DNA from: Spirochaetales bacterium
GTDB lineage: Bacteria; Spirochaetota; Spirochaetia; UBA9216
Direction: 5' to 3'
Assembly (NCBI GenBank): GCA_016342585.1
Contig: JAEINK010000005.1
Span: forward strand, 62,001-126,000
DNA length: 64,000 bases
Positions 2,397 through 62,729 of this stretch are shown one piece after another (positions within the stretch are counted from its first letter, which is position 1; each line of letters starts with the position of its first letter). Made by a program: the position numbers and the translations under genes. The notes below the pieces were generated by a model. The model saw only the letters and a program-made list of their open reading frames with translations, had not been told where the DNA came from and ran no database searches.

Positions 2397-2425
2397 ATCC
2401 TAGGCCAAGCGTCCCGAACTGTCAA
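2397..2425 (-). promoter_or_regulatory. Promoter of nadE, predicted leaderless
   Basis: On the minus strand TTGACA (2425-2420), a 17-base spacer and TAGGAT (2402-2397) form a consensus-like sigma-70 promoter. Only six bases separate the -10 element from the nadE ATG at 2390, so transcription should begin at or next to the start codon. Confidence 0.7.
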
Positions 2426-2503
2426 GGAGAAGCAAATATTCACAGAAATATCAATTTAGAAATCCTGATAAAATTATTCATCCCTAAAGGGTTATGCAGG
2501 GAA

Positions 2504-2532
2504 TTGAATATTCGGCAGGTTCAATTTAAACT
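2504..2532 (+). promoter_or_regulatory. Promoter of rpiB
   Basis: TTGAAT (2504-2509), a 17-base spacer and TAAACT (2527-2532) lie upstream of rpiB. The predicted start leaves a leader of about 40 bases that contains a good ribosome binding site, in contrast to nadE on the other strand. Confidence 0.5.
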
Positions 2533-2578
2533 GAACAGGACCATCAAATAGAATCAATTAACCATTATAGGAGTTACC

Positions 2579-3022
2579 ATGGGAAAAATCCTGATAGCCA
2601 ACGATCACGGCGCAGTAGAATTAAAACAGAGGATACTCAAACATCTTGAAGGCAGGGGGTTTACCGTTGAAAACCTTGGTGTTGATACGGAAGACTCGGT
2701 AGATTATCCGGATCTGGCGGAAAAGGCCTGCCTTCAATACCTGAAGGGCAATTATGATTTTGGGATCCTCTGTTGCGGGACGGGCATTGGGATTTCGATT
2801 TCTGCCAATAAAGTAAAGGGGATTAGATGCGCCCTTCCCCAGGATACCTTTGCGGCTGAAATGACCAAAAAACATAATAATGTAAACTTCATCGCCTTTG
2901 GCGGAAGAATTGAGTATAAAGAACCTGTAGAGAAGATGCTCGATGCCTTTATCGACAGCCCATTTGAGGGGGGACGCCATCAGACAAGGATAGATAAAAT
3001 GATGGCTCTGGAAGAAAAATAG
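2579..3022 (+). CDS. rpiB: Ribose 5-phosphate isomerase B (RpiB/LacAB family)
   Basis: 147 residues, typical for RpiB. Asp9-His10 (ANDHGAVELK) and the active-site Cys66 within CCGTGIGISISANK are present; the latter loop binds the sugar phosphate and catalyses proton transfer. The enzyme interconverts ribose 5-phosphate and ribulose 5-phosphate in the cytoplasm. The AGGAG ribosome binding site seven bases before the ATG fixes the start. It stands alone between divergently and convergently oriented genes. Some family members act on allose or galactose phosphates, and the sequence alone does not exclude that. Confidence 0.9.
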   Translation: MGKILIANDHGAVELKQRILKHLEGRGFTVENLGVDTEDSVDYPDLAEKACLQYLKGNYDFGILCCGTGIGISISANKVKGIRCALPQDTFAAEMTKKHNNVNFIAFGGRIEYKEPVEKMLDAFIDSPFEGGRHQTRIDKMMALEEK

Positions 3023-3072
3023 GGAGAACCCGCCCAGAACCTTTCAGAACCACCATACAACACGGAGAAAAT

Positions 3073-3103
3073 GTGGGTCGGCTTAGACCTTAAAGCGACC
3101 CAC
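3073..3103 (-). terminator. Hairpin at the end of the chemoreceptor gene
   Basis: An 8-bp stem, GTGGGTCG paired with CGACCCAC, straddles the stop codon of the chemoreceptor gene. On the minus strand it is followed by ACATTTTCTCC, a modest T-rich run, so it probably terminates that transcript. The plus strand has no T run. Confidence 0.5.
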
Positions 3104-5311
3104 TTGCTCCATAATTCCTTCCATAGCTTCCTTATTGTTTATAACAAGCTCCCGGATCTGGCCAATCGATGCGGAAATCTCACCCATCCCGGTAGAAATC
3201 TCGGATATACTTGCATTCGACTCACTGGAAAGGCCGGAGATATCGGTTAAGGCCTGACGTGATGATTTAGAACTTGCCTCGACACTCCTGCTGGCCTGTT
3301 TCACATTGGCAGAAGAGTCTACAAGATTATTCAAGGCTTCGGTAATCTGATGAGTACCCTGGGACAACTCGGAGAGGGCGTTTAGAATCTCTTCCATGGC
3401 ATTGGAAGACTGCTCGGTCTCATCAGCAATCCTGTTGATCGAATCGCCGGTCTCTATGGATCTGGAGGAGGTCTCCTGAATCTGATTTATGATCATCTTA
3501 ATCGATTGATCTATCTGACTGGAACTCGAAACGGTAGATTCGGCAAGCTTCCTTATCTCTTCGGCAACGACAGCAAAACCCTTCCCCGCATCCCCTGCGT
3601 GAGCCGCCTCGATGGCAGCATTCATGGACAAAAGATTGATCTGACTGGATATTCCATCGATGACAGTGAGGACTTCGGATATGGAATCGGCGGAACTGGC
3701 TATACTTTTGATATCTGTGACGGTTTGATCCATCTCCTCTTTACCATGCCTTGCCGCTACGGAAAGGGCCCGGATCTGATCAGCCCTGTCCCGGCTCACC
3801 TTTGTGATGCTGTTTATCGAAGCAACCATCTCCTCAACCGCGGCCGAAGACTGCTCCACAGCCGCTGATTCATTATCGGCCTGAATAGAGACATCGGTAA
3901 TTGAATGCAAAATCTCACCCAGCTCGTTATCCGCATGAATAGCTTTATCCGCCAACTTTCCCGACTTATCCTTTATAGATTGACTGCTTGCGGCCATCTC
4001 CTCCTCCGCGCTGGCTATTTCTTCAACATTTGAAGCAAGAGACAGACTCAACGCTTCACCGGTACCGGCTGAAGCTGTCAAATTCAGGACGACCCCCTGC
4101 AACTTTTCCATCATCAAATTAAAGCTGTCGGATAACTTACCCATTTCATCCTTTGTTTTGATCCCAAGCCGGAAGGTAAGATCCCCGGAACCTTCAGCAA
4201 TAGTCGACATCCTTGCAGAAGCTTTAGTAATTGAATTGGATATTACAGAGAGAAAGAAATAGAGAACCAGACCCATGATTATTATTGAAAGTGCACTGAT
4301 CAATAGGAGAACAGCCCGCACGGTTTTAATCACGGAAAGGATATCGTCATTGTACTGGGTATAAACAAGAATCCAGTCCCGAGGCTCATAATACTTCACA
4401 TAACCGATTTTTTTGAAGGCCTTATCTTCCGGCTCACCCGGACGCGTATACCAGTACTCCACAGCCCCCTCTCCGAGGGCAAAATATTTCTCGGTCAGAT
4501 TTTCTCCGGTTAGAATATCGGAAGTGGAACTCTGCGTCCCTATAAGATCCCGATTTATATAGGCAATATATTCATCATCCCTGTTTTTTATGAATGGATA
4601 GGCACTCCCTTCGATACCATCATAGAGAGATTCATTCAATGAACGCATATTCACATCATCAAATTTTCTGACCGTATCTTCGATATTGTCAATGTATTCA
4701 CCGGTACCGATAACCCATCCCCAGGGTTCAAACAAGAGCGTATAGCCTATCTTCTCTGAAACCTCTTCCTCCCCGGGTTTAGCAAACCAGTAGTTTACAA
4801 AAGCCTCACCCTCATTCACAGCCCCGTCTACGAGTTCGCGCACAATAAAGGTTCCCTTGAAATCTTTTAAATCATACCTTGACGTCCCCTCCACGGAGGG
4901 GTTGGGTGGTAAAAGGATATTAATATAGTCCGTATTATCTATCCAGTAATATCCGCTCCTTCCAAACCAGAGGTTCCGGATATTATCTTTAGCCTGGTTT
5001 TGAGCCTCCTCGCGGCTCAAGGTACCTTCCGCTTCCATCCGGTAGAAACCATCAGCTACATCAATGGCGACCTCGACAAGCTCCTTAAGGCGTCTTTTTG
5101 TTTCAGAAAGGAGAATCTCACGCTGAACATCACTATTATGATCCAGCATTGCAACCTGGCTGTATACATTCTGTACATAGGTTTTTGCAAAATCGGCGTT
5201 CTGTTCCAGGGCCATAGCCGAAAGCCGGCGACCGACAATCAAATAAACCGATGAAAAAGAAATAAGCAAGAGTAAGAAAACAGGAAGAAAGATCTTGAGT
5301 TTAATCGACAT
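3083..5311 (-). CDS. Methyl-accepting chemotaxis protein with two Cache-type sensor domains
   Basis: 742 residues. There is an N-terminal membrane segment at about residues 6-27, then two related extracytoplasmic Cache-like units. The first contains [13 protein letters not shown] and [14 protein letters not shown], and the second [13 protein letters not shown] and [13 protein letters not shown] second membrane segment follows near residues 330-355, then HAMP, then the receptor signalling domain with the tip signature [16 protein letters not shown]. It would pass ligand signals to CheA/CheW. No C-terminal CheR-docking pentapeptide is seen. The GTGAGG ribosome binding site supports the start. 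It lies outside the che operon. The ligand is unknown; Cache units of this type often bind small carboxylates or amines. Confidence 0.92.
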
Positions 5312-5380
5312 AAAAACCTCACAATAAAATTGGTTATTCCCAAATTCTTAATTTGCATCAAGAAGTTTTTGTTTCTACTA

Positions 5381-5408
5381 ATTTTATCATAATTCGATTA
5401 TATAGCAA
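5381..5408 (-). promoter_or_regulatory. Candidate promoter of the chemoreceptor gene
   Basis: On the minus strand TTGCTA (5408-5403), a 16-base spacer and TAAAAT (5386-5381) lie about 70 bases before the start codon. The match is moderate and the surrounding DNA is AT-rich, so chance is possible. Confidence 0.35.
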
Positions 5409-5440
5409 GATATTAAAGCGGGGACCAGGAGTAGGGAAAT

Positions 5441-5476
5441 AAAACCTCCCCTCGCTTTCAGGAATGAGGGAAGGTC
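5441..5476 (-). terminator. Terminator of glyA
   Basis: Just past the glyA stop, the minus strand reads ACCTTCCCTC, a loop of about 12 bases, GAGGGGAGGT, then TTTTATTT. This is a GC-rich hairpin with a T run, typical of an intrinsic terminator. Confidence 0.7.
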
Positions 5477-5493
5477 CATTTTAGAAAAAGATG

Positions 5494-6780
5494 TTATTCC
5501 ACGTAGGCTGGTGTTCTTGTAACATTATCCGGTTCAGCTTCGATCGCCAGTCCCGGAGGAGTAAAGCTGGAGCAGAAAGCTCTAACCTCTTCGGCCATTT
5601 CATCAAGAAGAGGTTCATTATCCCTATTCTGAATCGCCCGGCTTATGAAATGAGCAATCTGCTTCATCTCGTCCTCACACATCCCCCGGCTTGTTACAGC
5701 GGGAGTACCGAGTCTTAATCCATTGGGATTAAAGGGTTTGGCATCATCAAAAGGGATAGTGGAGTATGAGCAGACGATCCCCGCCCGATCCATGGCCCTG
5801 GAGGCCTGCTTCCCGGTAACACCCATCCGCCGTAAATCCACAAGCATAAGATGATTCTTTGTTCCATTGGAGACAAGATCAAAACCAAGAGCCATCAATT
5901 CATCAGCCAGGACAGAAGCGTTGGCAACCACCTGCCTTGAATACTCTTTAAACTCATCAGTGGCAGCCTCTTTAAGAGCCGCCGCAATAGCAGCAGTCGT
6001 GTGATTATGGGGGCCCCCCTGACAACCGGGGAAAACAGCACGGTCTATAGCTTTGGCATGCTCCTCCTTACAGAGGATCATCCCCCCCCGGGGCCCGCGT
6101 AGAGTTTTATGTGTTGTTGTTGTTACAACATCGGCGTAAGGGACAGGTGAGGGATGAACACCCCCGGCCACCAAGCCTGCAAGATGCGCCATATCCACCC
6201 ATAAGATAGCACCGACTTCATCCGCAATGGCCCGAAATCTCTTCCAGTCGGGAATCCCGGAGAATGCCGAATGTCCGGCAATGATCATCTTTGGTTTATG
6301 CTCGCGTGCTATTGATTCCAGCTGCTCATAGTCAATATCACCTTCTGTATTTAAACCATAGGATTTAATATCATACTGTTTACCGGAAAAACTGACGGGA
6401 GATCCGTGGGTTAGATGCCCCCCATGGGATAATTCCATCCCAAGCACCCGGTCCCCGGGTGTAAGGAAAGCAAGATAGACAGCAAGATTAGCCGGTGAGC
6501 CGGAATAGGGCTGAACATTGGCATGGTCGGCCCCAAAGAGAGACTTGGCCCGCTCCACCGCAAGTTTTTCAATCTGGTCAACCATCTTCTGACCTTCATA
6601 ATAGCGACGGCCAATATACCCTTCCGAATACTTATTGGTTAAAACCGTACCTGTTGCCTCAAGAATTGCCGAAGAAACATAATTTTCCGATGCGATAAGC
6701 CGAATACTATCTCTCTGCCGAGCTTCCTCTCCGCTTATCATTTCTGCCAGAATAGGATCCAGGTTTCTGAGATTTTTCAT
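5494..6780 (-). CDS. glyA: Serine hydroxymethyltransferase
   Basis: 428 residues, normal for bacterial SHMT. It interconverts serine and glycine while loading one-carbon units on tetrahydrofolate, using PLP. The PLP lysine lies in TTTTHKTLRGPRGG, and YSGSPANLAVY, GHSAFSGIPDW and GPHNHTTAAIAAAL are family signatures. The start is supported by CAGGGGGAG just before the ATG. A strong promoter and a ZTP riboswitch precede the gene, linking its expression to the purine/folate intermediate ZMP/ZTP. It is monocistronic, with its own terminator. Confidence 0.96.
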   Translation of the reverse strand: MKNLRNLDPILAEMISGEEARQRDSIRLIASENYVSSAILEATGTVLTNKYSEGYIGRRYYEGQKMVDQIEKLAVERAKSLFGADHANVQPYSGSPANLAVYLAFLTPGDRVLGMELSHGGHLTHGSPVSFSGKQYDIKSYGLNTEGDIDYEQLESIAREHKPKMIIAGHSAFSGIPDWKRFRAIADEVGAILWVDMAHLAGLVAGGVHPSPVPYADVVTTTTHKTLRGPRGGMILCKEEHAKAIDRAVFPGCQGGPHNHTTAAIAAALKEAATDEFKEYSRQVVANASVLADELMALGFDLVSNGTKNHLMLVDLRRMGVTGKQASRAMDRAGIVCSYSTIPFDDAKPFNPNGLRLGTPAVTSRGMCEDEMKQIAHFISRAIQNRDNEPLLDEMAEEVRAFCSSFTPPGLAIEAEPDNVTRTPAYVE

Positions 6781-6844
6781 AACTCCCCCTGTGTATGAGT
6801 TCGAATGTAATTATTGTTAGAATAATATGCCTGATACATCCGGG

Positions 6845-6924
6845 TATTCAGCCCAGACGCGCGGCATTTGGAATTTCTTTGCTCCCCCGAGGTTCTCCCC
6901 GTTGATTGCGCCAGTCACAAAGAT
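6845..6924 (-). ncRNA. ZTP (pfl) riboswitch controlling glyA
   Basis: The transcribed leader contains the two conserved cores of the ZTP aptamer in the right order: GTGACTGGCG (rc of 6909-6918) and GCCGCGCGTCTGGGC (rc of 6851-6865). A first helix can be closed by CUUUG before the first core and CAAAG after a GGGGGAG segment. ZTP riboswitches sense ZMP/ZTP, which build up when formyl-tetrahydrofolate is short, and glyA is a classic target. Between the aptamer and the gene an AUUAUU/AAUAAU hairpin may form, but the expression platform is not clear. Confidence 0.87.
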
Positions 6925-6930
6925 GCAAAA

Positions 6931-6959
6931 AGTATAAACCGAGCCGCCCGAAGGGTCAA
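6931..6959 (-). promoter_or_regulatory. Promoter of the glyA riboswitch transcript
   Basis: On the minus strand TTGACC (6959-6954), exactly 17 bases, then TATACT (6936-6931). Transcription would start near 6924, immediately before the riboswitch aptamer, giving a leader of about 145 bases. Confidence 0.8.
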
Positions 6960-7030
6960 GACCGGCACCCTATTCCCATATTTTCCCATATTTAACAAGG
7001 GGAAGAATATTCAAATAAAAAATCATAAAA

Positions 7031-7063: not shown

Positions 7064-7086
7064 CCAAAAGGGAGCGCTTCTATCAA

Positions 7087-19290: not shown

Positions 19291-19737
19291 TTACTCCGTT
19301 ATCATTTTCAGCAAAGCTTCATCGGAGTCTGCATTTATAAGTTCCTCGCGAATCGCCGGATCTTTCAATATCTGGCTTATTTGAGCAAGGAACTGAACAT
19401 GAGGTCCAGTCCTGTTTTCAGGAGAGAGGGTCATGATGAAAAGTCGGCTGGGTTTTCCGTCAAGGGATTCGAAATCGACACCATCCCTCTTTACACCAAC
19501 ACATGCAACCATTTCCGAAACGGCACTTGTCTTCCCGTGGGGAATTGCAATACCATCCTGAATCCCGGTAGACATTTTCGACTCTCTATCAAGTATGCAT
19601 TTAACGGCAGAATCGCGATCCGTAATTTTACCGCCACGCATGAGTAAATCAAGCAGGTTCTCGATAACCTCTTTTTTACTGTCCCCTTCAAGAGTAACAG
19701 TAATAAGATCTTTGTTTAATATTTTCTTAAGGTTCAT
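19291..19737 (-). CDS. PTS EIIA (PtsN/fructose-type) domain protein
   Basis: 148 residues, one EIIA domain of the fructose/nitrogen class. The phospho-histidine lies in GIAIPHGKTS, and GPHVQFLAQISQIL is typical of the C-terminal helix. No EIIB or EIIC follows, so it is probably regulatory, modulating the antiporter encoded four bases downstream. There is no Shine-Dalgarno. The promoter ends six bases before the ATG, giving a predicted leaderless transcript. Confidence 0.87.
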   Translation of the reverse strand: MNLKKILNKDLITVTLEGDSKKEVIENLLDLLMRGGKITDRDSAVKCILDRESKMSTGIQDGIAIPHGKTSAVSEMVACVGVKRDGVDFESLDGKPSRLFIMTLSPENRTGPHVQFLAQISQILKDPAIREELINADSDEALLKMITE

Positions 19738-19743: not shown

Positions 19744-19772
19744 ACGATAAATTTTTGGTTTTCTTATGTCAA
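19744..19772 (-). promoter_or_regulatory. Promoter of the EIIA-antiporter operon, predicted leaderless
   Basis: On the minus strand TTGACA (19772-19767), 17 bases, TATCGT (19749-19744), then six bases to the ATG at 19737. Confidence 0.7.
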
Positions 19773-20118: not shown

Positions 20119-21822
20119 CTATAATTCAACTTTCCGGTGTGATAACCGTTTTGCCTCCCTGACGGCCTTCTCAATAGGAACGGACCATATTTTACCACTC
20201 TTCCTTTCGTAGAATTCAACCATTCCATCTTCCATTGTTTTAGAAGAGAGGACAATCCTATACGGAATACCCAGTAGATCCATATCCTGAAATTTCACCC
20301 CGGGGGATTCATGCCGATCATCAAGAATTGCAGAATCGCCCAGCTCTTCATGAAGTTTAAATGCGGCCTCACGGACCTTGAGGGCATGCCCTATTCCCAT
20401 AATATAAAAGAGATAGGGTGCAATCGTTACAGGCCAGAGAATACCTTTATCATCACGGTTTGCCTCGGCAATTGCAGCCATCAGCCGTTCGATACCAATA
20501 CCATAAGATCCCATATTGGGATAACATCGATTGGATTTCTCATCACGATAGTAAAGCCCCATAGTCCTGCTGTAATAATCACCCAGCTTAAAAATATTAC
20601 CAAGCTCAATAGCTTTGCGGGAATCGAGCTTCTCGCCACATTGAAAACAAAGATCCCCCTCCTTAAGACGGGACAAATCGCCAACCAAATCACTTTCAAA
20701 ATCCCGACCGAAGTTAACATTCGTATAATAAAGGTCATCCTTATTACTGCCAATGACAAAATTGTTTCCATTTGCGACAGCCTCATCGACCGCAACAGGA
20801 ATCTCATTCGATTCAATCCCGATCGGTGACATTGAGCCAAGATTAAATCCAAGCTGCTCAAGCTCTGCCGGGGTAGCGAGCCTGATGACAGGAGTCATCA
20901 AAAACCTGGATAGCTTTTCAAGACTGATCTCATAATCACCCCTTATAACTCCCACAGCAAAACCGTCTCTGGTTTTATAAACGAGAGTCTTGGCAATCCG
21001 GGAGAGATCAGTTTTAAAAAACGCAGCAGCCTGTTTTGAATCCCGAACACCTTCGGTGGTAACCTCCTCCATGGGCAGGGGAGATTCGGTCCTGTAATCC
21101 TTATAACCCACTGCAACATCCTGATTGGCTGTATAACCGCAAGAGGAGCACTCAAGCAGGGTATCCCTCCCCCTGTCACTTGGGAAAAGGAATTCATAGG
21201 CTTTATATCCACTCAAAGATCCTACTGCCGACTCGGCAGGAACAACGGGAACATGGCATTTGAGAAAAATCCGACTGTATGCCTGAAACATTTTGGGAAA
21301 GAAGTTATTAAGATCTGTAAAATTACGGTGAAAAGAGTAGGCATCGGACATAAGGAATTCTATCCCCCTCATGATTCCACCACTGACCCGCACTTCATCC
21401 CTTATTTTGCGCTGAAACTGAAAAAGGAATTGAGGGTAATCCCTCTTGGAGTTTGTACTCTGTTTTAGAAGATCAACCATTGGTTCAATATGACTGGGGG
21501 CAGCGACAAGTTTCCGTCCGGAACGGTCCTTAAAAACAATCATCTCTCTTTCAAGAATGGTATCCCTGGCTGTTTTTTCGAAATAACTGAATGGGACGGT
21601 TATAGGAAGAACGACTTCCTGACCACCAAGATCCTCGAGCTCTTCCCGAATAATCTCCATAATATTCCGAACAACCCGGAGTCCCAGGGGTAGCAAAACA
21701 TGAAATCCATTTCCACTTGGCTTAACATAACCGCCCTGTATAAGAAGATTGTAACTTGCCATGGAGCTCTTCTGGGAAGTCTCCCGAATCGTATTGTTTC
21801 CCAGAACCTTTGAATAAAGCAT
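20119..21822 (-). CDS. proS: Prolyl-tRNA synthetase, bacterial type
   Basis: 567 residues, the length of the bacterial form with an inserted editing domain. Class II motif 2 is seen in FQFQRKIRDEVRVSGGIMRG. The YbaK-like editing domain spans about residues 225-380 (QAAAFFKTDLSRIAKTLVYK). Motif 3 is in GSYGIGIERLMAAIAE, and a C-terminal anticodon-binding domain follows. It charges tRNA-Pro and clears Ala-tRNA-Pro. There is no Shine-Dalgarno; an almost perfect promoter ends seven bases before the ATG. Confidence 0.96.
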   Translation of the reverse strand: MLYSKVLGNNTIRETSQKSSMASYNLLIQGGYVKPSGNGFHVLLPLGLRVVRNIMEIIREELEDLGGQEVVLPITVPFSYFEKTARDTILEREMIVFKDRSGRKLVAAPSHIEPMVDLLKQSTNSKRDYPQFLFQFQRKIRDEVRVSGGIMRGIEFLMSDAYSFHRNFTDLNNFFPKMFQAYSRIFLKCHVPVVPAESAVGSLSGYKAYEFLFPSDRGRDTLLECSSCGYTANQDVAVGYKDYRTESPLPMEEVTTEGVRDSKQAAAFFKTDLSRIAKTLVYKTRDGFAVGVIRGDYEISLEKLSRFLMTPVIRLATPAELEQLGFNLGSMSPIGIESNEIPVAVDEAVANGNNFVIGSNKDDLYYTNVNFGRDFESDLVGDLSRLKEGDLCFQCGEKLDSRKAIELGNIFKLGDYYSRTMGLYYRDEKSNRCYPNMGSYGIGIERLMAAIAEANRDDKGILWPVTIAPYLFYIMGIGHALKVREAAFKLHEELGDSAILDDRHESPGVKFQDMDLLGIPYRIVLSSKTMEDGMVEFYERKSGKIWSVPIEKAVREAKRLSHRKVEL

Positions 21823-21829: not shown

Positions 21830-21858
21830 ATTATATTTCACCTTAATCATAGGTGCAA
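21830..21858 (-). promoter_or_regulatory. Promoter of proS, predicted leaderless
   Basis: On the minus strand TTGCAC (21858-21853), 17 bases, TATAAT (21835-21830), then seven bases to the ATG at 21822. Confidence 0.75.
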
Positions 21859-22158: not shown

Positions 22159-23097
22159 ATGGTAGAACTGGAACGTAAGATTCATGGAGACTGGTTTGAA
22201 ATCAGAGAAATCCTTGACGATGTCTATGCAATTGATGAATACCTGAATCTCTCAACAGCTGAATTAAACATACTGATCAATGACCTCCGCCTCTCTGTAG
22301 AGTCAGGAATTCTTGAATACAAAAGATCCGTGGTACTCAAAACCTATGAATTCATGGAGTCGATGAACTTTGATACAAAACAGTTCGCCATGGTAGATAA
22401 ATTCACGCTCTCTGTAACTAAACTATTGTATACTGTTCTGCTTGAAAAACTCTTTGCCAAAGGACTTCTTGTTCCAGGAAAACAGGAAAAGGAAGATGTA
22501 CAGCTTGGCGAGGAGTTTCAGGAAAAAGATATCAAGACTATCATGACTGAACTTCAAGCCATGGTTAAAAAGGAACCGGCCCTCGTCCAGCGAAATGAGG
22601 TAAAATCGATCCTGCTTCAGTTTAAAATGTATCAGAAAGAACTCACAGAAATGAGCAAACTTAAAAATAACATACCCAAGGAGAAGCTCCCGGCCTTCCT
22701 TGGAAATTTCAAGAATACACTCGATGGGCTCACCAAAAAAATACAGACAAACTATAATTTAATCCTGGCGGAAAAAACCGTTGTAGAGGTAAAGCAGGAG
22801 CATCCGAAGGGTGATTTAAGGCGATATAACATTTCCAAGCTGACTCCTTTGTTAGCCAAACAGGCTGAGATTATTTCCAACATCAGGTCCAGGATGCTCT
22901 TTGCCAGTGAAGAAAGATACCACACCAGGGAGGCCTTCAAATCAATCCCTTCCCAGCTGGAAGAACTGAAAAAGCTCATACGTTCAGAAGAAGAGTTTTT
23001 TGCAGCCATGGAGTTAAGAGAAGCAGCACTTATAGGGAAAAGTTTTTCGATCGAAATAATAAGAAGGATCGAAAAAAACCTGAACGTCAGGCTATAA
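22159..23097 (+). CDS. Unknown helical protein, possibly iron-regulated
   Basis: 312 residues; I do not recognise the family. It is charged and almost wholly helical, with coiled-coil-like stretches at about residues 100-230 and 270-312. There is no signal peptide or membrane segment, so it is probably cytoplasmic. The first 90 residues (HGDWFEIREILDDVYAIDEY and onward) form a compact acidic unit. The start has no Shine-Dalgarno but sits eight bases after a promoter -10 element, with a Fur-like box just upstream. It is monocistronic. Confidence 0.7.
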   Translation: MVELERKIHGDWFEIREILDDVYAIDEYLNLSTAELNILINDLRLSVESGILEYKRSVVLKTYEFMESMNFDTKQFAMVDKFTLSVTKLLYTVLLEKLFAKGLLVPGKQEKEDVQLGEEFQEKDIKTIMTELQAMVKKEPALVQRNEVKSILLQFKMYQKELTEMSKLKNNIPKEKLPAFLGNFKNTLDGLTKKIQTNYNLILAEKTVVEVKQEHPKGDLRRYNISKLTPLLAKQAEIISNIRSRMLFASEERYHTREAFKSIPSQLEELKKLIRSEEEFFAAMELREAALIGKSFSIEIIRRIEKNLNVRL

Positions 23098-29917: not shown

Positions 29918-30562
29918 ATGATCGATTATATACTTTTTGATATGGACAACTGCCTCTATCCGGCATCATCCGGTTTATGTTCCCGGATGGACGGACTTAT
30001 CTCCAATTTTGTGGCAGAACTCCTCTCGCTCCCTGTTAAAGAGGCTGAAAAAATGCGCAGGGAGAATGTCCTCACATATGGAACTACCCTGAAATGGCTT
30101 ACCGATTGCCATGATTTTAAAGATATTCATGAGTACAACAGGCATATCCATCCTGCGGATGTGGAAAACTATCTTAAGAAGGAGACAGGTATAAAGGAGA
30201 TGCTGGAAAGCCTTCCCTGCGGGAAAAGCGTCCTTACCAACGCCCCCCCCGTCCATGCGGACAGGGTTCTGAATTACCTGGGAATAAGTGGGCTCTTTGA
30301 TGAGGTTCTCTATCTAGGATTCTCGGGAACCATGGGGAAACCCCACAGGGAAACCTACCTCAGAGCGGCTGAAATATGCGGCTGTTCCATCGCCGACACC
30401 CTTTTTCTTGATGATGTTCCCGACTACTTAATCCCATTCCGGGATGAGGGGGGCGAAATACTCCTCGTTGACGAGACACGAAAGCATTCAGGGAGAAGTC
30501 TTCCTTCAATCACGAATATAATGGAACTGCCCGGGTACATAAAGGAGTGTTTCAATGTTTAG
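29918..30562 (+). CDS. HAD-superfamily phosphatase, pyrimidine 5'-nucleotidase-like
   Basis: 214 residues from the ATG at 29918 (29912 would add two residues). HAD motif I is FDMDNCLYP with the nucleophile and acid Asp pair. Motif II is in SVLTNAPP, motif III lysine in TMGKPHRETY, and motif IV in LFLDDVPDY. The helical cap and DMDNCLYP form resemble yeast Sdt1/Phm8-type nucleotidases. It is the first gene of a three-gene operon with overlapping ends, followed by a small membrane protein and a DMT transporter. Substrate unknown. Confidence 0.82.
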   Translation: MIDYILFDMDNCLYPASSGLCSRMDGLISNFVAELLSLPVKEAEKMRRENVLTYGTTLKWLTDCHDFKDIHEYNRHIHPADVENYLKKETGIKEMLESLPCGKSVLTNAPPVHADRVLNYLGISGLFDEVLYLGFSGTMGKPHRETYLRAAEICGCSIADTLFLDDVPDYLIPFRDEGGEILLVDETRKHSGRSLPSITNIMELPGYIKECFNV

Positions 30563-37087: not shown

Positions 37088-37116
37088 TTGAAAAATCATG
37101 AAAAAAGAAATAATCT
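37088..37116 (+). promoter_or_regulatory. Promoter of the FecR-like gene, predicted leaderless
   Basis: TTGAAA (37088-37093), 17 bases, TAATCT (37111-37116), then six bases to the ATG. No Shine-Dalgarno is present. Confidence 0.6.
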
Positions 37117-37122: not shown

Positions 37123-37908
37123 ATGAAACAAAAAATCGTATTTTATAGTGTAATTCTCTTCATTTTCAGCAGCAACCTTTTTGCGGAATCAGAGACCAGT
37201 TTTCAGTGTACATATGCTGAAGGTAACATTCTATTCGGTAAATCCGGAGCCTGGCAGGAACTGAATACAGGCAGGAGTGTAGGTGAAGACGATTTCCTGA
37301 GATTGGATAGTAATTCGATCGTAACCTTAAAAGAGGGTTCCAGGCAAATCACAATTTCATCACCCGGAACTTACAATATGGAAGAGATATCCCTTGAAAT
37401 TCCTCAGCGACAGAAAATCTCGCTAATTGATACATTCCTTACCAAACTTAAAAACATCCTGAATCCGGAAACTGTCATAAGCAGTCAGGCCCTTGGTGTT
37501 CGGGCGGCCGAAGTGGAAGATGCCGGTTTCGAATGGACGGATACAGATGAAGATGATTTTGAATATGCCCTTGAGCTCCTTGAGGAAGGGGACCTTGGTG
37601 AGGCTGAATACCTGTTAGAAGATCTTATAGATTTCGGAAATCCATACCAGATCGATGAGTACCGATTCTACCTTGCCTATTCAAAAATTCTCCAGGAGAA
37701 TCACGGAGAAGCGCTAAAACAGCTGAACCTGATAGAGGACGCCTCTATTTTTCCCTTCTATGAAGGGTTTCTCGTTCTCTTCGGGCGGCTCTCCTACGAG
37801 AGTATGAACGATCAGAAAGCAAAAGAGATTTGGGAAGAGTACATGTTGGAGTTCCCGGAAGGGTATGCCGCAGATGAGGCCAGGCAGTACTTAAGGAACA
37901 TACGATAA
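37123..37908 (+). CDS. Exported FecR-like/TPR protein
   Basis: 261 residues. Signal peptide (about 1-21), then a FecR-like beta domain (YAEGNILFGKSGAWQELNTG and LRLDSNSIVTLKEGSRQITI), an acidic linker and two or three TPR-like hairpins (ALELLEEGDLGEAEYLLEDL, then a second unit near residue 220). Similar modular proteins are common in spirochetes and are thought to scaffold envelope complexes. It has no gene partner. The function is unknown. Confidence 0.72.
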   Translation: MKQKIVFYSVILFIFSSNLFAESETSFQCTYAEGNILFGKSGAWQELNTGRSVGEDDFLRLDSNSIVTLKEGSRQITISSPGTYNMEEISLEIPQRQKISLIDTFLTKLKNILNPETVISSQALGVRAAEVEDAGFEWTDTDEDDFEYALELLEEGDLGEAEYLLEDLIDFGNPYQIDEYRFYLAYSKILQENHGEALKQLNLIEDASIFPFYEGFLVLFGRLSYESMNDQKAKEIWEEYMLEFPEGYAADEARQYLRNIR

Positions 37909-48141: not shown

Positions 48142-49083
48142 TCAGGCTCCTATAAAAAACATAATAATCATGAGGAGAACGAGAGTAATGGGCGTATAAA
48201 GGACCAGTAGGTTGTTATAGAAGACATTCTCCTTTTTATACTTCTCTCCCAGGAACACAGGAATAATAAAGGGAGGAGGAAGAAGGAAGAAGATAATAAA
48301 AGCATAGAGCATGATCTGGTTGATCTCCATAACAAATCTCGCGGTAAAGAGGGCCAGGAGAGTTCCGAAGATGGCAACAACTAGCAACCGCAAGCCGATC
48401 AGATGAACAGCAGACTTCCAGCTTATATGTTTAAAACTCAACATGGCCCCGATGGTAAGGAGGATCAGGGGAGTAACAATACCCGAGAGGATCTGGGTAG
48501 AGGCCAAAACAGCCTGAGAGAGGGGGTTGGTGTCTATACGAGCATATATTCCGGATATATTCAGGATCAAGGCCGACAGGATAGCAATTATCAGGGGGGA
48601 TTTGAAAAAGGATTTGATAATGGCTCCAAGGTGAACCTGACCCTTGTTTTTGGATTCCAATAAGGGAACATAAAAAAACCAGATGAATAACTCATGAGAA
48701 AGCCCGATTAGCAGAATATAGTGAAGATTTTCATGCCCGAAGAGACTGGTAAAAAGCGCAACGCCCACCATACCAAACTCAAATCCGGTAAAAAAGAAGG
48801 GGGAAAGGGGGTAACGACAAATTCCGAGTTTGCTTAACAGGACCCCTGTTCCATAGAGGAGAAAACAAACCAGAAAAGTGGCCCCGAAAAGGAGGAGATA
48901 GCTGGTTTGGATTTCCATAGTTAAAAATGACATAAATAAAACTGATGGGAGACCTACGGTAACGGTAATCTTTTTAAGACCACCAATAACTTCCTCTTTA
49001 AGGATTCCTGTCTTGCGAAGAGCGAACCCTATTAAAAGGAGAGCAAATATGGGGAAAAAACGAATAAGAATATCTATAATCAT
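48142..49083 (-). CDS. AEC-family transporter (auxin efflux carrier-like)
   Basis: 313 residues with ten predicted helices in two inverted halves. FFPIFALLLIGFALRKTGIL at the start and VTPLILLTIGAMLS in the second half are typical of the family. Bacterial members export or exchange small organic acids such as malate. It is monocistronic. There is no Shine-Dalgarno; a perfect TTGACA lies 17 bases before CATGGT, six bases ahead of the ATG. Confidence 0.87.
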   Translation of the reverse strand: MIIDILIRFFPIFALLLIGFALRKTGILKEEVIGGLKKITVTVGLPSVLFMSFLTMEIQTSYLLLFGATFLVCFLLYGTGVLLSKLGICRYPLSPFFFTGFEFGMVGVALFTSLFGHENLHYILLIGLSHELFIWFFYVPLLESKNKGQVHLGAIIKSFFKSPLIIAILSALILNISGIYARIDTNPLSQAVLASTQILSGIVTPLILLTIGAMLSFKHISWKSAVHLIGLRLLVVAIFGTLLALFTARFVMEINQIMLYAFIIFFLLPPPFIIPVFLGEKYKKENVFYNNLLVLYTPITLVLLMIIMFFIGA

Positions 49084-49089: not shown

Positions 49090-49118
49090 ACCATGAACTA
49101 TTAATATTTACTTGTCAA
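49090..49118 (-). promoter_or_regulatory. Candidate promoter of the AEC transporter, predicted leaderless
   Basis: On the minus strand TTGACA (49118-49113), 17 bases, CATGGT (49095-49090, a weak -10), then six bases to the ATG. Confidence 0.5.
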
Positions 49119-56802: not shown

Positions 56803-57744
56803 ATGAATATGCACGCCAACAGCAGGAAAAAGCCAAAAAAAATTATCTGGAAGTTATTTCTCCTTCTCCTTCTCATATTACTTGTATCCGCTGGCATTTA
56901 TTATATATTACCAGGTGAAGATGATTTCGGAACCTTTCTCTCCATGCGGAATGATATGACCCGAATCATTAAAGATTCAGATGGTGCGGAGAGGGATATT
57001 AACCTCCGGTTTAACGATTATCAGCTGAAACTGAATCCTCTTTATGCTTTTATGTTTAAATCCGGAAAACTGGATCTCTACATGAAGAGTTATTCCAATG
57101 ATAAACTTGCGGCCATCTCTATCAACCAACTTGAGATAGGCAGGGACACAAATAATTTCTTTGATTTTACCTTCATGTTTCGACCAAAACCAGAATTCAG
57201 CCTGCCCCTCTTCCATGGTGATGCCCTGAAGAAGCTTCCTGGTGTTCACGGAGCCCTCTATATGGACTTTTATGCTCTTAATGCCAATACAGATTATGAA
57301 ACCTTCTTCGGACAGGAAATAGAAAAGATTGAAGAGGCGATACACCTGGCAGAACCCTACTGGAACCATCATGATTTTGGAAGCCTGACGCCCCACCTGG
57401 ATCCCTATAAAAGTCCCTGGCGCTTTGAAATCCGGGCTCCGGAAAAGGGGGATGATGAGACAATGAGGGTATATTACAGCACGGCGGCAAGATGCCTTTC
57501 TCTCTATTCCGAAGCCTATATGAGATCGGTTGCAGCCTGGAGTGTCACCAGTAACAAACCCATAAATGAAAAGATTAAGGAAGAGAATAGAGAAAGCTTT
57601 GATGGCTTTGTACAGGTTCTCTATCGGGAAGATGTGGCCGTAAAACTGGGAAAGATGCTCTTTCCGGAAGAGGATTTTGATTCATATTTTCTGGAAGGAT
57701 TCTGGGGGATTGAACCGGAAGGTTTTTTAAATATAAAAGATTAA
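56803..57744 (+). CDS. Membrane-anchored protein of unknown function
   Basis: 313 residues. One N-terminal membrane anchor (IWKLFLLLLLILLVSAGIYY) and a soluble exported domain of about 280 residues with histidine- and tryptophan-rich motifs (YWNHHDFGSLTPHLDPYKSP). I do not recognise the family. It follows the ferredoxin gene by 47 bases, so it could be a partner in electron transfer, but its own promoter sits right before it. It ends at a strong bidirectional terminator. Confidence 0.68.
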   Translation: MNMHANSRKKPKKIIWKLFLLLLLILLVSAGIYYILPGEDDFGTFLSMRNDMTRIIKDSDGAERDINLRFNDYQLKLNPLYAFMFKSGKLDLYMKSYSNDKLAAISINQLEIGRDTNNFFDFTFMFRPKPEFSLPLFHGDALKKLPGVHGALYMDFYALNANTDYETFFGQEIEKIEEAIHLAEPYWNHHDFGSLTPHLDPYKSPWRFEIRAPEKGDDETMRVYYSTAARCLSLYSEAYMRSVAAWSVTSNKPINEKIKEENRESFDGFVQVLYREDVAVKLGKMLFPEEDFDSYFLEGFWGIEPEGFLNIKD

Positions 57745-57780: not shown

Positions 57781-57790
57781 AAGGATTATT

Positions 57791-58588
57791 TTACGAAAGC
57801 GTGGAGTCATCATCCACATAATCGCTCACATCTCCCTCCGAAGAGAGGGTAAGAGTGGATTCATCATAGAGCTTTACGATGGTCGTGGATGCTTTTCGAT
57901 TTTCTGAAAAATCTTTTAAAATACATGTACCGGTAGATCCATTATGAAAATCGAGTACAGCAGTCTCGATAAAAAGTTCATTCATAACAACACTCCCGGC
58001 ATCACTGAAACAGAAGATTGAATCTGCCTGGCCGGCAAGCTCAACACAACTAGAATAGATCCTCAAGTTTAAATCATCGGCCTCTATCACTCCTGTAAGG
58101 GTACTGCCGACAGAGACTTCCAGATCAACCCTGTCTCCAAAAAAGTTTTGCATATCCAGAGTACTTCCGCTAGTTACAGAAATCTTAACATCCTCGGGAA
58201 GAGGAGTACCCGATAATTTTCCATGGGATTTTGCTTCGATAGTAATCTTTTCGAGACGGGGTACCTCCACGACAGCCGCCAGGGTAGCTGGATTATATTT
58301 ATAGGCATCAGGCAGGATAATGAAAAGAGAGGCCCCCTGCTGAACAACGTCAACATTCTCGATGATATTTTCATCAGCCTTCACCTTTACACTATAACTA
58401 TCAGACATGACAATCTCAAAATTCTCGATTCCCGATATAGTCAAGGAATCAAAATTTTCATTGTTAAAATTCTTTGAGATAACTTCTCCAACTCCTTTTT
58501 CGGGAGCTCCCGATGCGAATAAAACCTGACTGCATATAAATGCAGCCACCAATAAAAATAAAACTGTTTTCTTTCTTCCATTCTTCAT
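57791..58588 (-). CDS. Exported DUF2807 (head GIN domain) protein
   Basis: 265 residues. Signal peptide to about residue 26, followed by a beta-helix-like DUF2807 domain (FDSLTISGIENFEIVMSDSY; SGSTLDMQNFFGDRVDLEVS). It is probably periplasmic or surface-exposed. AAGGAG precedes the ATG. It is divergent from a histidine kinase gene, with a cluster of CpxR-like repeats between them, so it is a likely target of that two-component system. Confidence 0.82.
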   Translation of the reverse strand: MKNGRKKTVLFLLVAAFICSQVLFASGAPEKGVGEVISKNFNNENFDSLTISGIENFEIVMSDSYSVKVKADENIIENVDVVQQGASLFIILPDAYKYNPATLAAVVEVPRLEKITIEAKSHGKLSGTPLPEDVKISVTSGSTLDMQNFFGDRVDLEVSVGSTLTGVIEADDLNLRIYSSCVELAGQADSIFCFSDAGSVVMNELFIETAVLDFHNGSTGTCILKDFSENRKASTTIVKLYDESTLTLSSEGDVSDYVDDDSTLS

Positions 58589-58654
58589 GAATATCTCCTT
58601 AAAGTGAATATAAAAAAGAGAATATCCCTTACAGTTAAACCAATGTTTAAGCTT

Positions 58655-58683
58655 ATGTAAACAGCATGTAAAATCTATGTAAA
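58655..58683 (+). promoter_or_regulatory. Three CpxR-like direct repeats
   Basis: ATGTAAA begins at 58655, 58666 and 58677, an exact 11-base (one helical turn) period. The GTAAA cores are separated by six bases, like CpxR boxes (GTAAA-N4-8-GTAAA). A further TTGTAAA begins at 58696. They lie upstream of the kinase promoter and downstream of no gene, and could serve both divergent genes. Confidence 0.7.
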
Positions 58684-58711
58684 AGAGTCTGTGATTTGTA
58701 AAACTCTCTCT

Positions 58712-58739
58712 ATGACAAGAGAAATCGAAAACCTATAAT
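58712..58739 (+). promoter_or_regulatory. Promoter of the two-component operon, predicted leaderless
   Basis: ATGACA (58712-58717), 16 bases, a perfect TATAAT (58734-58739), then six bases to the kinase ATG. The direct repeats lie 29 bases upstream of the -35. Confidence 0.65.
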
Positions 58740-58745
58740 CCGCTC

Positions 58746-60512
58746 ATGGTAACGAATAAAAGAAAGATTGATCCACTCATATTTATAATAATAATAATTG
58801 CAATACTGGCCATTGGTCTGGGTTTTCTTCAGCTTAAATGGATTAATAGCTTTTCAAAAAGCAGCGAAGTCAGGCTTAGATCGAGTCTGAATAATTCTAT
58901 GCTTCAAATTCTGAATTCAACTAAAATCGATACTAGTATCCTATATTCGGTAATTTACCTTACCGATAAAGAGGTTGAAGAAAAAGATTACACCAGGTTT
59001 GAAAGAGATCTTGAATCATGGCGAACGAACACTACATTTAAGGAACTTTTTAAAACCGCCTACCTCACGGTCCCATCATCAAATGATGAGTTTCAGTATT
59101 ACCGCTGGGATAGAAATAAAGCGGATTTCATGCCAATCCCTTCACCAGCTTTTTTTGAAAAAGTGTGGAAAAACTTTACCGATGGAAGTTTACAGGGATT
59201 AAAGGAACTGGAGAAGGAGATTAGACGAGAGGGAATATTTCTGATCAGCCCTGTAATGCCGGCTGCTTCTGAAAATAAAAATGAAGCATCCCCACCTCCC
59301 CTGCCAACTATTCTGACAATCGAAATCAACACGGAATATATAAACAATACAATTCTTCCGTATTATATTAATAAATATCTTCAAGACTACCCCTTTTCCA
59401 TAACCAGTACAGATAGTTCAGAAACGATTATAAGCCAGGGTGAAATGCCAGAGGTGAAGAACCCGGAACTTTCTGTTCCCATCAATAAATCCCTTTACAT
59501 TCCATTCAGCGATCAATTTGATCATAGAAATGAGGAGGAACAATCTTTAAACTTTTTTATACGATTATGGATGACTATAAATGAGATACCCAACGAGGCC
59601 ACAAATAATGATCATCTTGATTTCAATCTTAATGTTTTTTACCCGGAAGAGGATCTCTCCTCCCAAATAAAAAAAACACGAATATTCAATTTAATCGTAA
59701 GTACAGGTTTTGAGGGATTATTCCTTGCCACACTCATAATTTTATATATTCTTTATCGTCGAAACCGGGATATGAGAATTAAGGAGCGGAACTTCATTTC
59801 ATCTATGAGCCACGAATTAAGAACTCCCATCGCAGTTATCAAATCAACATCTGACACCCTGAAAAAAGGCATTGTCACAGATCAAGAAAGGATTCAACTT
59901 TATAGTAATACAATTTCCAAACAAGCAAACAGGTTATCGGATAATGTAGAGGGAATTTTAAAATATTCGGGTCTAATAGAGAATAAAAATAACCTTCCGA
60001 TTACAGGCTCTACAAATCTTTCAGAAATAGCCGCCGATACTTCAGATGCTATGGAACTATTAATAATCGAAAAAAATGGAATCCTGACAAAAAAGATTAC
60101 ACCCGGAATAGAGGCAAATATTAATAAAGAGGCTTTTCGTCTGATCGTCGAAAACCTCCTATCCAATGCTTTAAAGCATGGATTACAATCTGATAAACCA
60201 GAAAGACCACAGGGAGAAATTACAGTAGAGCTATCCATCAATGGAGATTTTGCTGAATTAAAGATTTCCGACAGAGGACCGGGAATTTCCATATTTGAAA
60301 AAAAGAGGATCTTCTCTCCATTTTTCAGATGTAAATACAGCAGGGAAAACCAAACCCCCGGGAACGGGCTGGGTCTTCACCTGGTCAAGAGAACCATAGA
60401 GATACTCGGCGGAAGTGTAGAGGTTCAAACTCCGTGTTATCCGGAAGAGATAAATGATCGCCGGGGCAGCAGATTTATTGTTCAAATACCAATCACAAAG
60501 GAAGAGATATGA
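58746..60512 (+). CDS. Sensor histidine kinase
   Basis: 588 residues. Two membrane helices (about residues 12-32 and 317-337) enclose a 285-residue extracytoplasmic sensor of no recognised type. The cytoplasmic part has the phospho-acceptor His in SSMSHELRTPIAVIKS, then the ATPase with VENLLSNALKHGL, SDRGPGIS and GNGLGLHLVKR. No HAMP domain is evident. It has no Shine-Dalgarno. Its stop overlaps the response regulator start by four bases. Confidence 0.92.
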   Translation: MVTNKRKIDPLIFIIIIIAILAIGLGFLQLKWINSFSKSSEVRLRSSLNNSMLQILNSTKIDTSILYSVIYLTDKEVEEKDYTRFERDLESWRTNTTFKELFKTAYLTVPSSNDEFQYYRWDRNKADFMPIPSPAFFEKVWKNFTDGSLQGLKELEKEIRREGIFLISPVMPAASENKNEASPPPLPTILTIEINTEYINNTILPYYINKYLQDYPFSITSTDSSETIISQGEMPEVKNPELSVPINKSLYIPFSDQFDHRNEEEQSLNFFIRLWMTINEIPNEATNNDHLDFNLNVFYPEEDLSSQIKKTRIFNLIVSTGFEGLFLATLIILYILYRRNRDMRIKERNFISSMSHELRTPIAVIKSTSDTLKKGIVTDQERIQLYSNTISKQANRLSDNVEGILKYSGLIENKNNLPITGSTNLSEIAADTSDAMELLIIEKNGILTKKITPGIEANINKEAFRLIVENLLSNALKHGLQSDKPERPQGEITVELSINGDFAELKISDRGPGISIFEKKRIFSPFFRCKYSRENQTPGNGLGLHLVKRTIEILGGSVEVQTPCYPEEINDRRGSRFIVQIPITKEEI

Positions 60513-61198
60513 TGATGAAAAAAGTACTCCTCATTGAGGATGAACCTGGATTGCAGATGAGTATAGAAGACAACCTCAAGGCAGCAGGATATGCAGTAAC
60601 AATCTGCGGGGATGGGATAACAGGAGAATCGACAGCATTCATGGAAGAGTGGGATCTCATGCTTCTGGATATAATGCTGCCCGGAAAGGACGGTTTTGAG
60701 ATATGTCGTTCTGTCAGAAAAAAAGGTATAAAAAATCCAATAATAATGCTTACAGCCAGATCCCTTGTAATGGACAAGGTCATGGGGTTAAACATAGGAG
60801 CCGATGACTATATCTCAAAACCTTTTGATATAGATGAACTAATAGCCCGGATCAATGCTGTGTTCCGAAGAGGCCGGTATACAGAGAGTGGCATTTCCAA
60901 TGGAAATATCAGTTTTGGGAAGTTTATCCTGAACACAGAGACTGCAACTCTTATCACAGGTAAAGAGAATATCCATTTGAATACGAGAGAATATCTACTC
61001 TTGAAATTTTTTGCAGAAAACAGAAACAGGGTTGTTCACAGAAATGAGCTCCTCGATCAGGTTTGGGGTTATGATTCGGTAGCAACAACCAGAACCGTGG
61101 ATGTCCACGTGGCATGGCTGCGAAAAAAACTGGGTGAACAAAAGGAGAACCATCATATAACAACCGTACGTGGTTTAGGGTATCGTTTTTCGGAGTGA
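60509..61198 (+). CDS. OmpR-family response regulator
   Basis: 229 residues. The receiver has EDEPGLQMS and the phospho-Asp in DLMLLDIMLPGKDG, with Lys in YISKPFDIDEL. A winged-helix output domain follows (LNTREYLLLKFFAE; TRTVDVHVAWLRKKLG). It is coupled to the kinase by a four-base overlap (ATGA). It probably binds the ATGTAAA repeats upstream of its own operon. Confidence 0.93.
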   Translation: MMMKKVLLIEDEPGLQMSIEDNLKAAGYAVTICGDGITGESTAFMEEWDLMLLDIMLPGKDGFEICRSVRKKGIKNPIIMLTARSLVMDKVMGLNIGADDYISKPFDIDELIARINAVFRRGRYTESGISNGNISFGKFILNTETATLITGKENIHLNTREYLLLKFFAENRNRVVHRNELLDQVWGYDSVATTRTVDVHVAWLRKKLGEQKENHHITTVRGLGYRFSE

Positions 61199-61355
61199 CA
61201 ATTAAAACAAGCCTGTGGATGTTGAAAAGGTTACTGATTTAATGGGATTTTGTTCTATTAGGAATGGATGATTATCGACATTTTTAGATATATTATAGTA
61301 ATATAGCGGATATTCAGGGTAAATATTATGAATCCCTATAGTAAGAGGTCGTTTT

Positions 61356-62657
61356 ATGTTAAAGATTGTTAAATTTGGTGGAACAAGCCTGGCTACAGCA
61401 GAACAGCTGCAGAAGGTCAAAAATATAGTAGATGCGGATCCGGCACGCAGGGTCATCGTTCCCTCGGCTCCGGGAAAAGCCCATAAAGAGGATACAAAGG
61501 TTACAGACTTGCTTTACCTCGTCCATGAACTGGCGGCAATGAAACAGTCCATCGATCAGGTCTGGACTAAAATTATGGACCGGTTCAATGGCATCATTTC
61601 AGAACTTGGTCTGGATATGAATCTATCAAAAGAGTTTGAAGAGATTCGGAAAAAACTGATTGAGGGCGTTGATTCACAATATATGGCAAGCCGTGGCGAA
61701 GCCTTGAACGGAAGAATCGTAGCAGCTTACCTTGATGCCGAATATATAGATGCCGCTGATGTTATTAAAATTGCCTCCAACGGCAGAGCTCACCCTTCCA
61801 GTTATGATCTGATAAGAAAACTCTGTCCGGATGACACCAGGCGTTATGTTATTCCAGGATTCTACGGTTCGACAACCTCGGGTGAAGTCGCAACTTTCAG
61901 CAGGGGAGGTTCCGACGTCACTGGGGCTATTGTAGCTAATGCCCTTGATGCAGATGTCTATGAAAACTGGACCGATGTTTCCGGATTTCTTATGACAGAT
62001 CCAAGGATTGTCGCAAGTGCCAAACATATAGAAAATATAACCTATACGGAACTGAGGGAACTCTCCTACATGGGTGCTGGCGTTCTACATGAGGAAGCTG
62101 TTTTCCCCATCAGAGAAAAAGGGATCCCCATAAATATCAGAAATACCAATAATCCGGAAGATAAAGGCACCATGATAGTTGCCGACAGGGACTCCTCCAG
62201 CCAGAAAATCGTCGGAATAGCCGGGCAGAAGGGATTCAGTGTTTTCTACATTGAGAAAGCTATGATGAATGAGGAGATTGGTTTTGGTCGAAGAGTTCTG
62301 GATGTTTTCGAGCACCTGGGTATAAGTTATGAACATATGCCCTCAGGGATCGATACCGTCTCGGTTGTGGTAAAAACCACTAAAATTAATGGAAAAATGG
62401 ATCAGATCATGGAAGATCTTAACAGATTGAAAATTGATAATCTTAAGGTTCTTGAAAACATGAGCCTCATTGCTACGGTAGGTAAGGGAATGAACCACGT
62501 GATAGGGCTTGCGGCCAAACTGTTCATGGCTCTTGCTGAGGCAGATATTAATATCAGGATGATCGATCAGGGCTCCTCCGAACAAAACATCATCGTGGGA
62601 GTCGAAGAGAAGGACCACGAAAAAGCCATCAAAGCAATTTACACCACCTTCGCCTGA
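61356..62657 (+). CDS. Aspartate kinase
   Basis: 433 residues. The amino-acid-kinase fold has KFGGTSLATAEQL at the N-terminus, GSDVTGAIVANALDADVYE in the catalytic core and two C-terminal ACT domains. It makes aspartyl phosphate, the first step to lysine, methionine and threonine. The ACT domains allow feedback control. AAGAGG precedes the ATG. The gene appears to be monocistronic. Which end product regulates it cannot be told. Confidence 0.93.
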   Translation: MLKIVKFGGTSLATAEQLQKVKNIVDADPARRVIVPSAPGKAHKEDTKVTDLLYLVHELAAMKQSIDQVWTKIMDRFNGIISELGLDMNLSKEFEEIRKKLIEGVDSQYMASRGEALNGRIVAAYLDAEYIDAADVIKIASNGRAHPSSYDLIRKLCPDDTRRYVIPGFYGSTTSGEVATFSRGGSDVTGAIVANALDADVYENWTDVSGFLMTDPRIVASAKHIENITYTELRELSYMGAGVLHEEAVFPIREKGIPINIRNTNNPEDKGTMIVADRDSSSQKIVGIAGQKGFSVFYIEKAMMNEEIGFGRRVLDVFEHLGISYEHMPSGIDTVSVVVKTTKINGKMDQIMEDLNRLKIDNLKVLENMSLIATVGKGMNHVIGLAAKLFMALAEADINIRMIDQGSSEQNIIVGVEEKDHEKAIKAIYTTFA

Positions 62658-62682
62658 GAACTCACCACCTGAGAACTCACCA
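62653..62682. repeat. Tandem 15-bp duplication over the aspartate kinase stop
   Basis: CCTGAGAACTCACCA occurs twice in a row (62653-62667, 62668-62682). The first copy contains the gene's stop codon. Confidence 0.95.
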
Positions 62683-62717
62683 ATAGATTTTAATACCCGG
62701 TATACATTATTTCAGAG

Positions 62718-62723
62718 TATACT
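62718..62723 (+). promoter_or_regulatory. -10 element before the beta-helix lipoprotein gene, predicted leaderless
   Basis: TATACT lies exactly six bases before the ATG at 62730. No good -35 is seen at the usual distance. Confidence 0.45.
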
Positions 62724-62729
62724 GGGTAT

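What the first reader, a model, noticed from the sequence alone, without database searches (positions are those of the whole stretch)
2397..62729. Widespread predicted leaderless mRNAs with a fixed -10-to-ATG spacing of 6-8 bases
Many genes here have no Shine-Dalgarno but have a sigma-70-like promoter whose -10 hexamer ends 6-8 bases before the ATG, so transcription should begin at the start codon. The best cases are nadE (TTGACA-17-TAGGAT-6), the EIIA gene (TTGACA-17-TATCGT-6), proS (TTGCAC-17-TATAAT-7), 22159 (TTGAAA-17-TAAAAT-8), 37123 (TTGAAA-17-TAATCT-6), the kinase at 58746 (ATGACA-16-TATAAT-6) and the AEC gene (TTGACA-17-CATGGT-6). Weaker cases are 20079, 29918, 44474, 48074, 56803 and 62730. 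Genes with good Shine-Dalgarno sites (rpiB, glyA, cheW, opp, gdhA, marR) have promoters further up. Such a frequency of leaderless starts is unexpected for this group and would shape how its translation is regulated.
Basis: partly seen in the sequence, partly recalled or inferred. Interest (0 to 1): 0.85.

Follow-up and report, generated by a model that had tools for sequence, protein, structure and literature searches.

The report
Leaderless mRNAs common in a spirochaete
In this spirochaete about one gene in twelve appears to have its promoter so close to the start codon that the messenger RNA begins at the first codon itself, a known second way to start translation that sequence evidence shows is widespread in this bacterial group and is kept at particular genes across families.

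Summary
The window comes from a 5.0 Mb spirochaete draft genome. I called 1,033 genes in 1.39 Mb of it, choosing starts by coding potential alone. Among 422 genes without a Shine-Dalgarno (SD) match, a TANNNT hexamer ends exactly 6 bases before the start in 49, against 12.0 +/- 3.9 per position elsewhere. Those 49 genes also show TTG at -35 to -33 and a pyrimidine at -1, so they are complete sigma-70 promoters with the A of ATG as predicted +1. A mixture model puts 7.7% of genes in this class, 10.4% in a relative from another family, and 0.2% in E. coli K-12. All seven "best" cases score P >= 0.75; the six "weaker" ones do not stand individually. In orthologues at 45-60% identity the promoter-to-ATG spacing persists across families (EIIA 14/20, proS 12/19). 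Where it is missing an SD site often replaces it; rpiB (SD here) shows the reverse swap. A spacing-specific excess appears in most Spirochaetota families tested. It is not unexpected for the phylum: Leptospira interrogans has about 440 mapped leaderless or near-leaderless mRNAs. This is a known kind in a new lineage. No RNA data exist for this organism.

The parts
2397..2425 (-). nadE promoter: -35 TTGACA (2420-2425), 17 bp, -10 TAGGAT (2397-2402), 6 bp to ATG at 2390
   Evidence: P(leaderless)=0.99; spacing kept in 5 other orthologues at likelihood ratio >10
312..2390 (-). NAD synthase (nadE), predicted leaderless start at 2390
   Evidence: Pfam NAD_synthase and CN_hydrolase; start chosen by coding potential alone
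19744..19772 (-). EIIA promoter: -35 TTGACA (19767-19772), 17 bp, -10 TATCGT (19744-19749), 6 bp to ATG at 19737
   Evidence: P=1.00; same architecture in 14 of 20 homologues, the window's own included
19291..19737 (-). PTS EIIA gene, predicted leaderless
   Evidence: Pfam PTS_EIIA_2
21830..21858 (-). proS promoter: -35 TTGCAC (21853-21858), 17 bp, -10 TATAAT (21830-21835), 7 bp to ATG at 21822
   Evidence: P=0.95; 12 of 19 orthologues, own included, at likelihood ratio >10
20119..21822 (-). prolyl-tRNA synthetase (proS), predicted leaderless
   Evidence: Pfam tRNA-synt_2b, tRNA_edit, HGTP_anticodon
22122..22150 (+). promoter TTGAAA-17-TAAAAT, 8 bp before ATG at 22159
   Evidence: P=0.75
37088..37116 (+). 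promoter TTGAAA-17-TAATCT, 6 bp before ATG at 37123
   Evidence: P=0.80
58712..58739 (+). promoter ATGACA-16-TATAAT, 6 bp before the histidine kinase ATG at 58746
   Evidence: P=0.98; Pfam HisKA and HATPase_c
49090..49118 (-). AEC transporter promoter TTGACA-17-CATGGT, 6 bp before ATG at 49083
   Evidence: P=0.97; 4 other homologues at likelihood ratio >10; Pfam Mem_trans weak, E=1.2e-4
   Evidence: P=0.55
2579..3022 (+). rpiB, SD-led here (contrast gene)
   Evidence: P=0.00, SD match of 5; 15 of 20 orthologues SD-led; four of the five without SD have a promoter at leaderless distance

Best explanation
About 8% of genes in this spirochaete are transcribed by the main (sigma-70-type) RNA polymerase from promoters placed so that +1 is the A of the ATG, or at most about three bases before it. 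The mRNA therefore begins 5'-AUG with no leader and no SD site, and translation must start by the leaderless route (a ribosome carrying initiator tRNA binding the 5'-terminal AUG) alongside ordinary SD initiation for other genes. Shown from sequence: the promoter, its spacing, its statistical excess, the absence of SD, its conservation across families and the swap with SD sites in orthologues. Inferred: the exact transcription start and the ribosomal mechanism.
For: Peak at exactly 6 bp in no-SD genes, 49 against 12.0 +/- 3.9, absent in SD genes. The same 49 genes carry T/T/G at -35/-34/-33 (37, 36 and 23 of 49), and the -35 match is best at this distance (57% with >=4 of 6; most other distances well below that). 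Mixture model: 4.8% of genes at 6 bp, about 0 at 1-4 bp, sum over 5-9 bp 7.7%; relative G208 10.4%; E. coli K-12 0.2%; reversed-sequence control 0.5%. Leaderless genes start with ATG in 67 of 68 (SD genes 365 of 411, p=0.008) and have a pyrimidine at -1 in 52 of 68 (SD genes 196 of 411, p=1e-5). Orthologue spacing conserved: EIIA 14/20, proS 12/19, nadE 6/16, AEC 5/12 at likelihood ratio >10, own gene included. SD and leaderless promoters alternate at rpiB. Signature pattern 36 against 10 at a shifted spacing in the own genome.
Against: No transcript, 5'-end or proteomic data for this organism. Leaderlessness is not clearly conserved gene by gene between this genome and G208 over 41 reciprocal-best pairs (odds ratio 2.2, p=0.49), so much of it turns over. 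About 14% of the leaderless-class weight falls in operon-internal genes, where the promoter may be secondary.
Confidence: 0.92

Rival explanations
1. The start codons are mis-called: the promoter is real, but the true start is a downstream in-frame codon with its own SD, giving a normal leader of 20-90 nt.
For: Starts were predicted, not measured.
Against: A downstream in-frame start with SD >=5 within 90 nt occurs in 4 of 68 leaderless genes, the same rate as in SD genes (26 of 411). Orthologues align from the same first residue, with offset 0 in all proS and nearly all EIIA rows. A spacing locked to that one ATG would be unexplained.
Confidence: 0.04
2. Transcription starts a few bases before the ATG, giving 2-6 nt leaders rather than exactly leaderless mRNAs.
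For: Spacings of 7-9 bp occur and start-site choice normally varies by a base or two; in Leptospira about half of the starts within 10 nt are at 0-1 nt (PMC5243855).
Against: The modal spacing is 6, an A is present at +1 in 67 of 68 and a pyrimidine at -1 is enriched, which favours +1 at the A. Such short leaders cannot hold an SD, so initiation would be functionally leaderless.
Confidence: 0.25
3. Chance: -10-like hexamers are frequent in AT-rich intergenic DNA.
Against: The excess is confined to one spacing and to no-SD genes, comes with a matching -35, and is absent in E. coli and in reversed sequence.
Confidence: 0.01

Closest known systems
Leaderless mRNAs of Leptospira interrogans (dRNA-seq, PMC5243855)
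   Same: Same phylum; many transcripts starting within 0-10 nt of the start codon.
   Different: Measured there, predicted here. That study found no clear promoter consensus apart from sigma-54, whereas here a clear TTGAC-17-TAnnnT promoter is seen.
TA-led (leaderless) genes of Zheng et al. 2011 (PMC3160421)
   Same: TANNNT about 10-12 bp upstream of the start codon, no SD; reported for 6 of 18 spirochaete genomes at 1.8-6.9% of genes.
   Different: Share here is slightly above the top of their spirochaete range (7.7% in this genome, 10.4% in G208), by a different method. The -35 element and orthologue conservation are added here.
Leaderless classes of Actinobacteria and Deinococcus-Thermus
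   Same: Same promoter-at-start architecture coexisting with SD genes.
   Different: Much higher shares there (averages 19% and 39% in PMC3160421).

Membership tests
Bacterial leaderless (TA-led) genes | -10-like TANNNT about 10-12 bp upstream of the start codon, in excess over shuffled or background sequence | tested here: met
   49 against 12.0 +/- 3.9 at 6 bp from hexamer end to ATG; 7.7% against 0.2% in E. coli
Bacterial leaderless (TA-led) genes | no Shine-Dalgarno sequence | tested here: met
   expected leaderless share 15.9% in no-SD genes and 1.1% in genes with SD >=5
Bacterial leaderless (TA-led) genes | matching -35 element at 16-18 bp (sigma-70 promoter) | tested here: met
   T/T/G 37, 36 and 23 of 49 at -35/-34/-33
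Bacterial leaderless (TA-led) genes | ATG start codon | tested here: met
   67 of 68
Bacterial leaderless (TA-led) genes | 5' end of the mRNA mapped at the start codon | not testable with these tools
   no RNA data held
Bacterial leaderless (TA-led) genes | translation from the 5'-terminal AUG demonstrated | not testable with these tools
   needs reporter, proteomics or ribosome profiling

The most novel reading that the evidence does not exclude
Leaderless initiation is an old second initiation route across the Spirochaetota. Some genes (EIIA, proS) have kept it between families, while others (rpiB, nadE, AEC) flip between a leaderless promoter and an SD leader in different lineages. One sampled family with small genomes (f5, 1.0-1.8 Mb) shows no detectable excess and may have lost it.
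Probability: 0.6. Interest if true: 0.55.

Novelty: new member of a known kind. Interest (0 to 1): 0.45.

Why it matters
Leaderless genes escape SD-based and leader-based control (riboswitches, attenuators, most small RNAs), tie translation directly to promoter choice, and respond differently to initiation factors and to some antibiotics. In annotation they are the genes whose starts SD-based gene finders place worst. The orthologue sets found here (EIIA, proS, rpiB, nadE) show closely matched genes in the same phylum using either route, which makes the cost or benefit of leaderless initiation testable by swapping upstream regions in a cultured, harmless spirochaete.

Tried and rejected
A first codon-usage gene finder was too weak and was replaced by an order-4 three-phase Markov model. 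A first orthologue pass missed minus-strand loci and was redone. The DUF493 orthologues could be located but not read. Gene-by-gene conservation between two genomes over 41 pairs was not significant, so I do not claim that leaderlessness in general is conserved, only at the genes tested. Rejected: chance, and systematic mis-called starts. An enrichment of regulators or transporters among leaderless genes was seen by eye but not tested against a background.

Full report
What the window is. The window lies in a 5.0 Mb draft genome of 127 contigs. Three FlaA (PF04620) matches place it in the spirochaetes, while none of the 14 control genomes has the family. The window's G+C is 43.9%. No name for the organism was obtainable and no 16S gene is in the assembly.

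The observation. The seven 'best' promoters are in the sequence exactly as quoted. To test them against chance I took 1.39 Mb of the same genome (and the window), wrote a gene finder that chooses starts from coding potential alone without looking upstream, and obtained 1,033 genes with 100 nt of upstream sequence. Among 422 genes with no SD match, TANNNT ends 6 bases before the start in 49 and 7 bases before in 27, against 12.0 +/- 3.9 per position between 12 and 59. Among 411 genes with an SD match of five or more there are 3 and 0. Using the 5'-most ATG instead gives the same peak (55 at 6 bases). Internal in-frame ATGs give no peak at 6.

It is a promoter, not a lone hexamer. In those 49 genes the positions -35, -34 and -33 read T, T, G in 37, 36 and 23 cases, and -1 is C or T in 36 of 49 and G in one. 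Genes with TANNNT at most other distances have weaker -35 matches. With fixed E. coli-like promoter weights, a mixture over all promoter-to-start distances puts 4.8% of genes at 6 bp and almost none at 1-4 bp, with leadered promoters spread from about 14 bp up. The sum over 5-9 bp is 7.7% of genes here, 10.4% in G208 (a relative from another family of the class, 400 kb) and 0.2% in E. coli K-12 (550 kb). Reversing the upstream sequences gives 0.5%. Leaderless-class genes start with ATG in 67 of 68 cases.

Single cases. P(leaderless) is 0.99 nadE, 1.00 EIIA, 0.95 proS, 0.75 for 22159, 0.80 for 37123, 0.98 for the kinase and 0.97 for AEC. For 20079, 44474, 56803 and 62730 it is 0.12, 0.38, 0.09 and 0.39. 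The starts at 29918 and 48074 were not called and their best promoter matches are poor.

Across species. In homologues from up to 40 relatives, nearly all at 45-60% protein identity and from many families of the class, the spacing is kept while the rest of the upstream DNA differs: EIIA 14 of 20, proS 12 of 19, nadE 6 of 16 and AEC 5 of 12 (own gene included) at likelihood ratio above 10, most at p about 0.005 against shuffles of the same sequence. Where nadE and AEC orthologues lack it, several have an SD site instead. The SD-led gene rpiB shows the reverse: 15 of 20 orthologues have SD, and four of the five without SD carry a promoter at leaderless distance. Over 41 reciprocal-best pairs with G208 the state is not significantly shared, so turnover is common and the strong conservation is a property of some genes.

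Across the phylum. The pattern TTGACA-16..18-TANNNT-6..7-ATG occurs 36 times in this genome against 10 at a shifted spacing (18-19). Over 39 genomes of the class it is 778 against 268. The families range from 2.0- to 7.3-fold, except f5 (seven genomes of 1.0-1.8 Mb) at 1.27-fold, p=0.30. Other families of the phylum that I totalled also show an excess, for example f25 113 against 19, f38 154 against 37 and f18 994 against 492, with f27 the weakest at 304 against 215 (totals typed by hand).

Mechanism. Shown by sequence: a sigma-70-type promoter whose spacing places +1 at the A of the ATG, no SD, and conservation. Inferred: an mRNA beginning with AUG and leaderless initiation by the ribosome. 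Leaders of one to three bases cannot be excluded and would be functionally equivalent. Systematic start mis-calling is disfavoured: downstream SD-led starts are no more frequent than in SD genes (4 of 68 against 26 of 411), and orthologues begin at the same residue.

What is known. Leaderless genes identified by TANNNT about 10-12 bp upstream of the start were predicted in 6 of 18 spirochaete genomes at 1.8-6.9% (PMC3160421). In Leptospira interrogans 430-450 genes have a mapped start within 10 bp of the start codon (PMC5243855). GeneMarkS-2 predicts leaderless transcription in 21.6% of bacterial species (cited in PMC9581028). The kind is therefore known, also in this phylum. What is added is a sharp promoter definition in another spirochaete lineage, a share slightly above the top of the earlier range, and orthologue sets in which the leaderless state is kept or exchanged with SD.

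Noticed in passing
6844-6928 (minus strand): ZTP riboswitch upstream of glyA, above the Rfam gathering score; glyA is a clear leadered gene.
   Followed up: no
genome sample, 0 bp before the start codon: A second, smaller excess of TANNNT directly abutting the start codon (37 in all genes, in both SD and no-SD genes) without a matching -35. Its meaning is unclear; it may be an A/T preference around the start.
   Followed up: partly
window 20119-21822 and G000:C125:1214-2914: Two prolyl-tRNA synthetase paralogues (36% identical) in this genome; several relatives also have two. The conserved leaderless promoter was examined only for the type in the window.
   Followed up: no
genome G138 (same class, family f8): Highest signature count in the sampled phylum, 110 against 29 at shifted spacing in 3.1 Mb; probably the best genome for studying the class.
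   Followed up: no
window 48142-49083; L097:12350-13231; L085:15143-16087: Three AEC-type (Mem_trans) transporters are among the predicted leaderless genes; regulators (DeoR, MerR, GntR, MarR), sensor kinases, HutP and two tRNA synthetases also appear. Enrichment was not tested.
   Followed up: partly
22159-23097, 37123-37908, 56803-57744: Three intact genes with no Pfam match at E 0.001; the first two are predicted leaderless.
   Followed up: no
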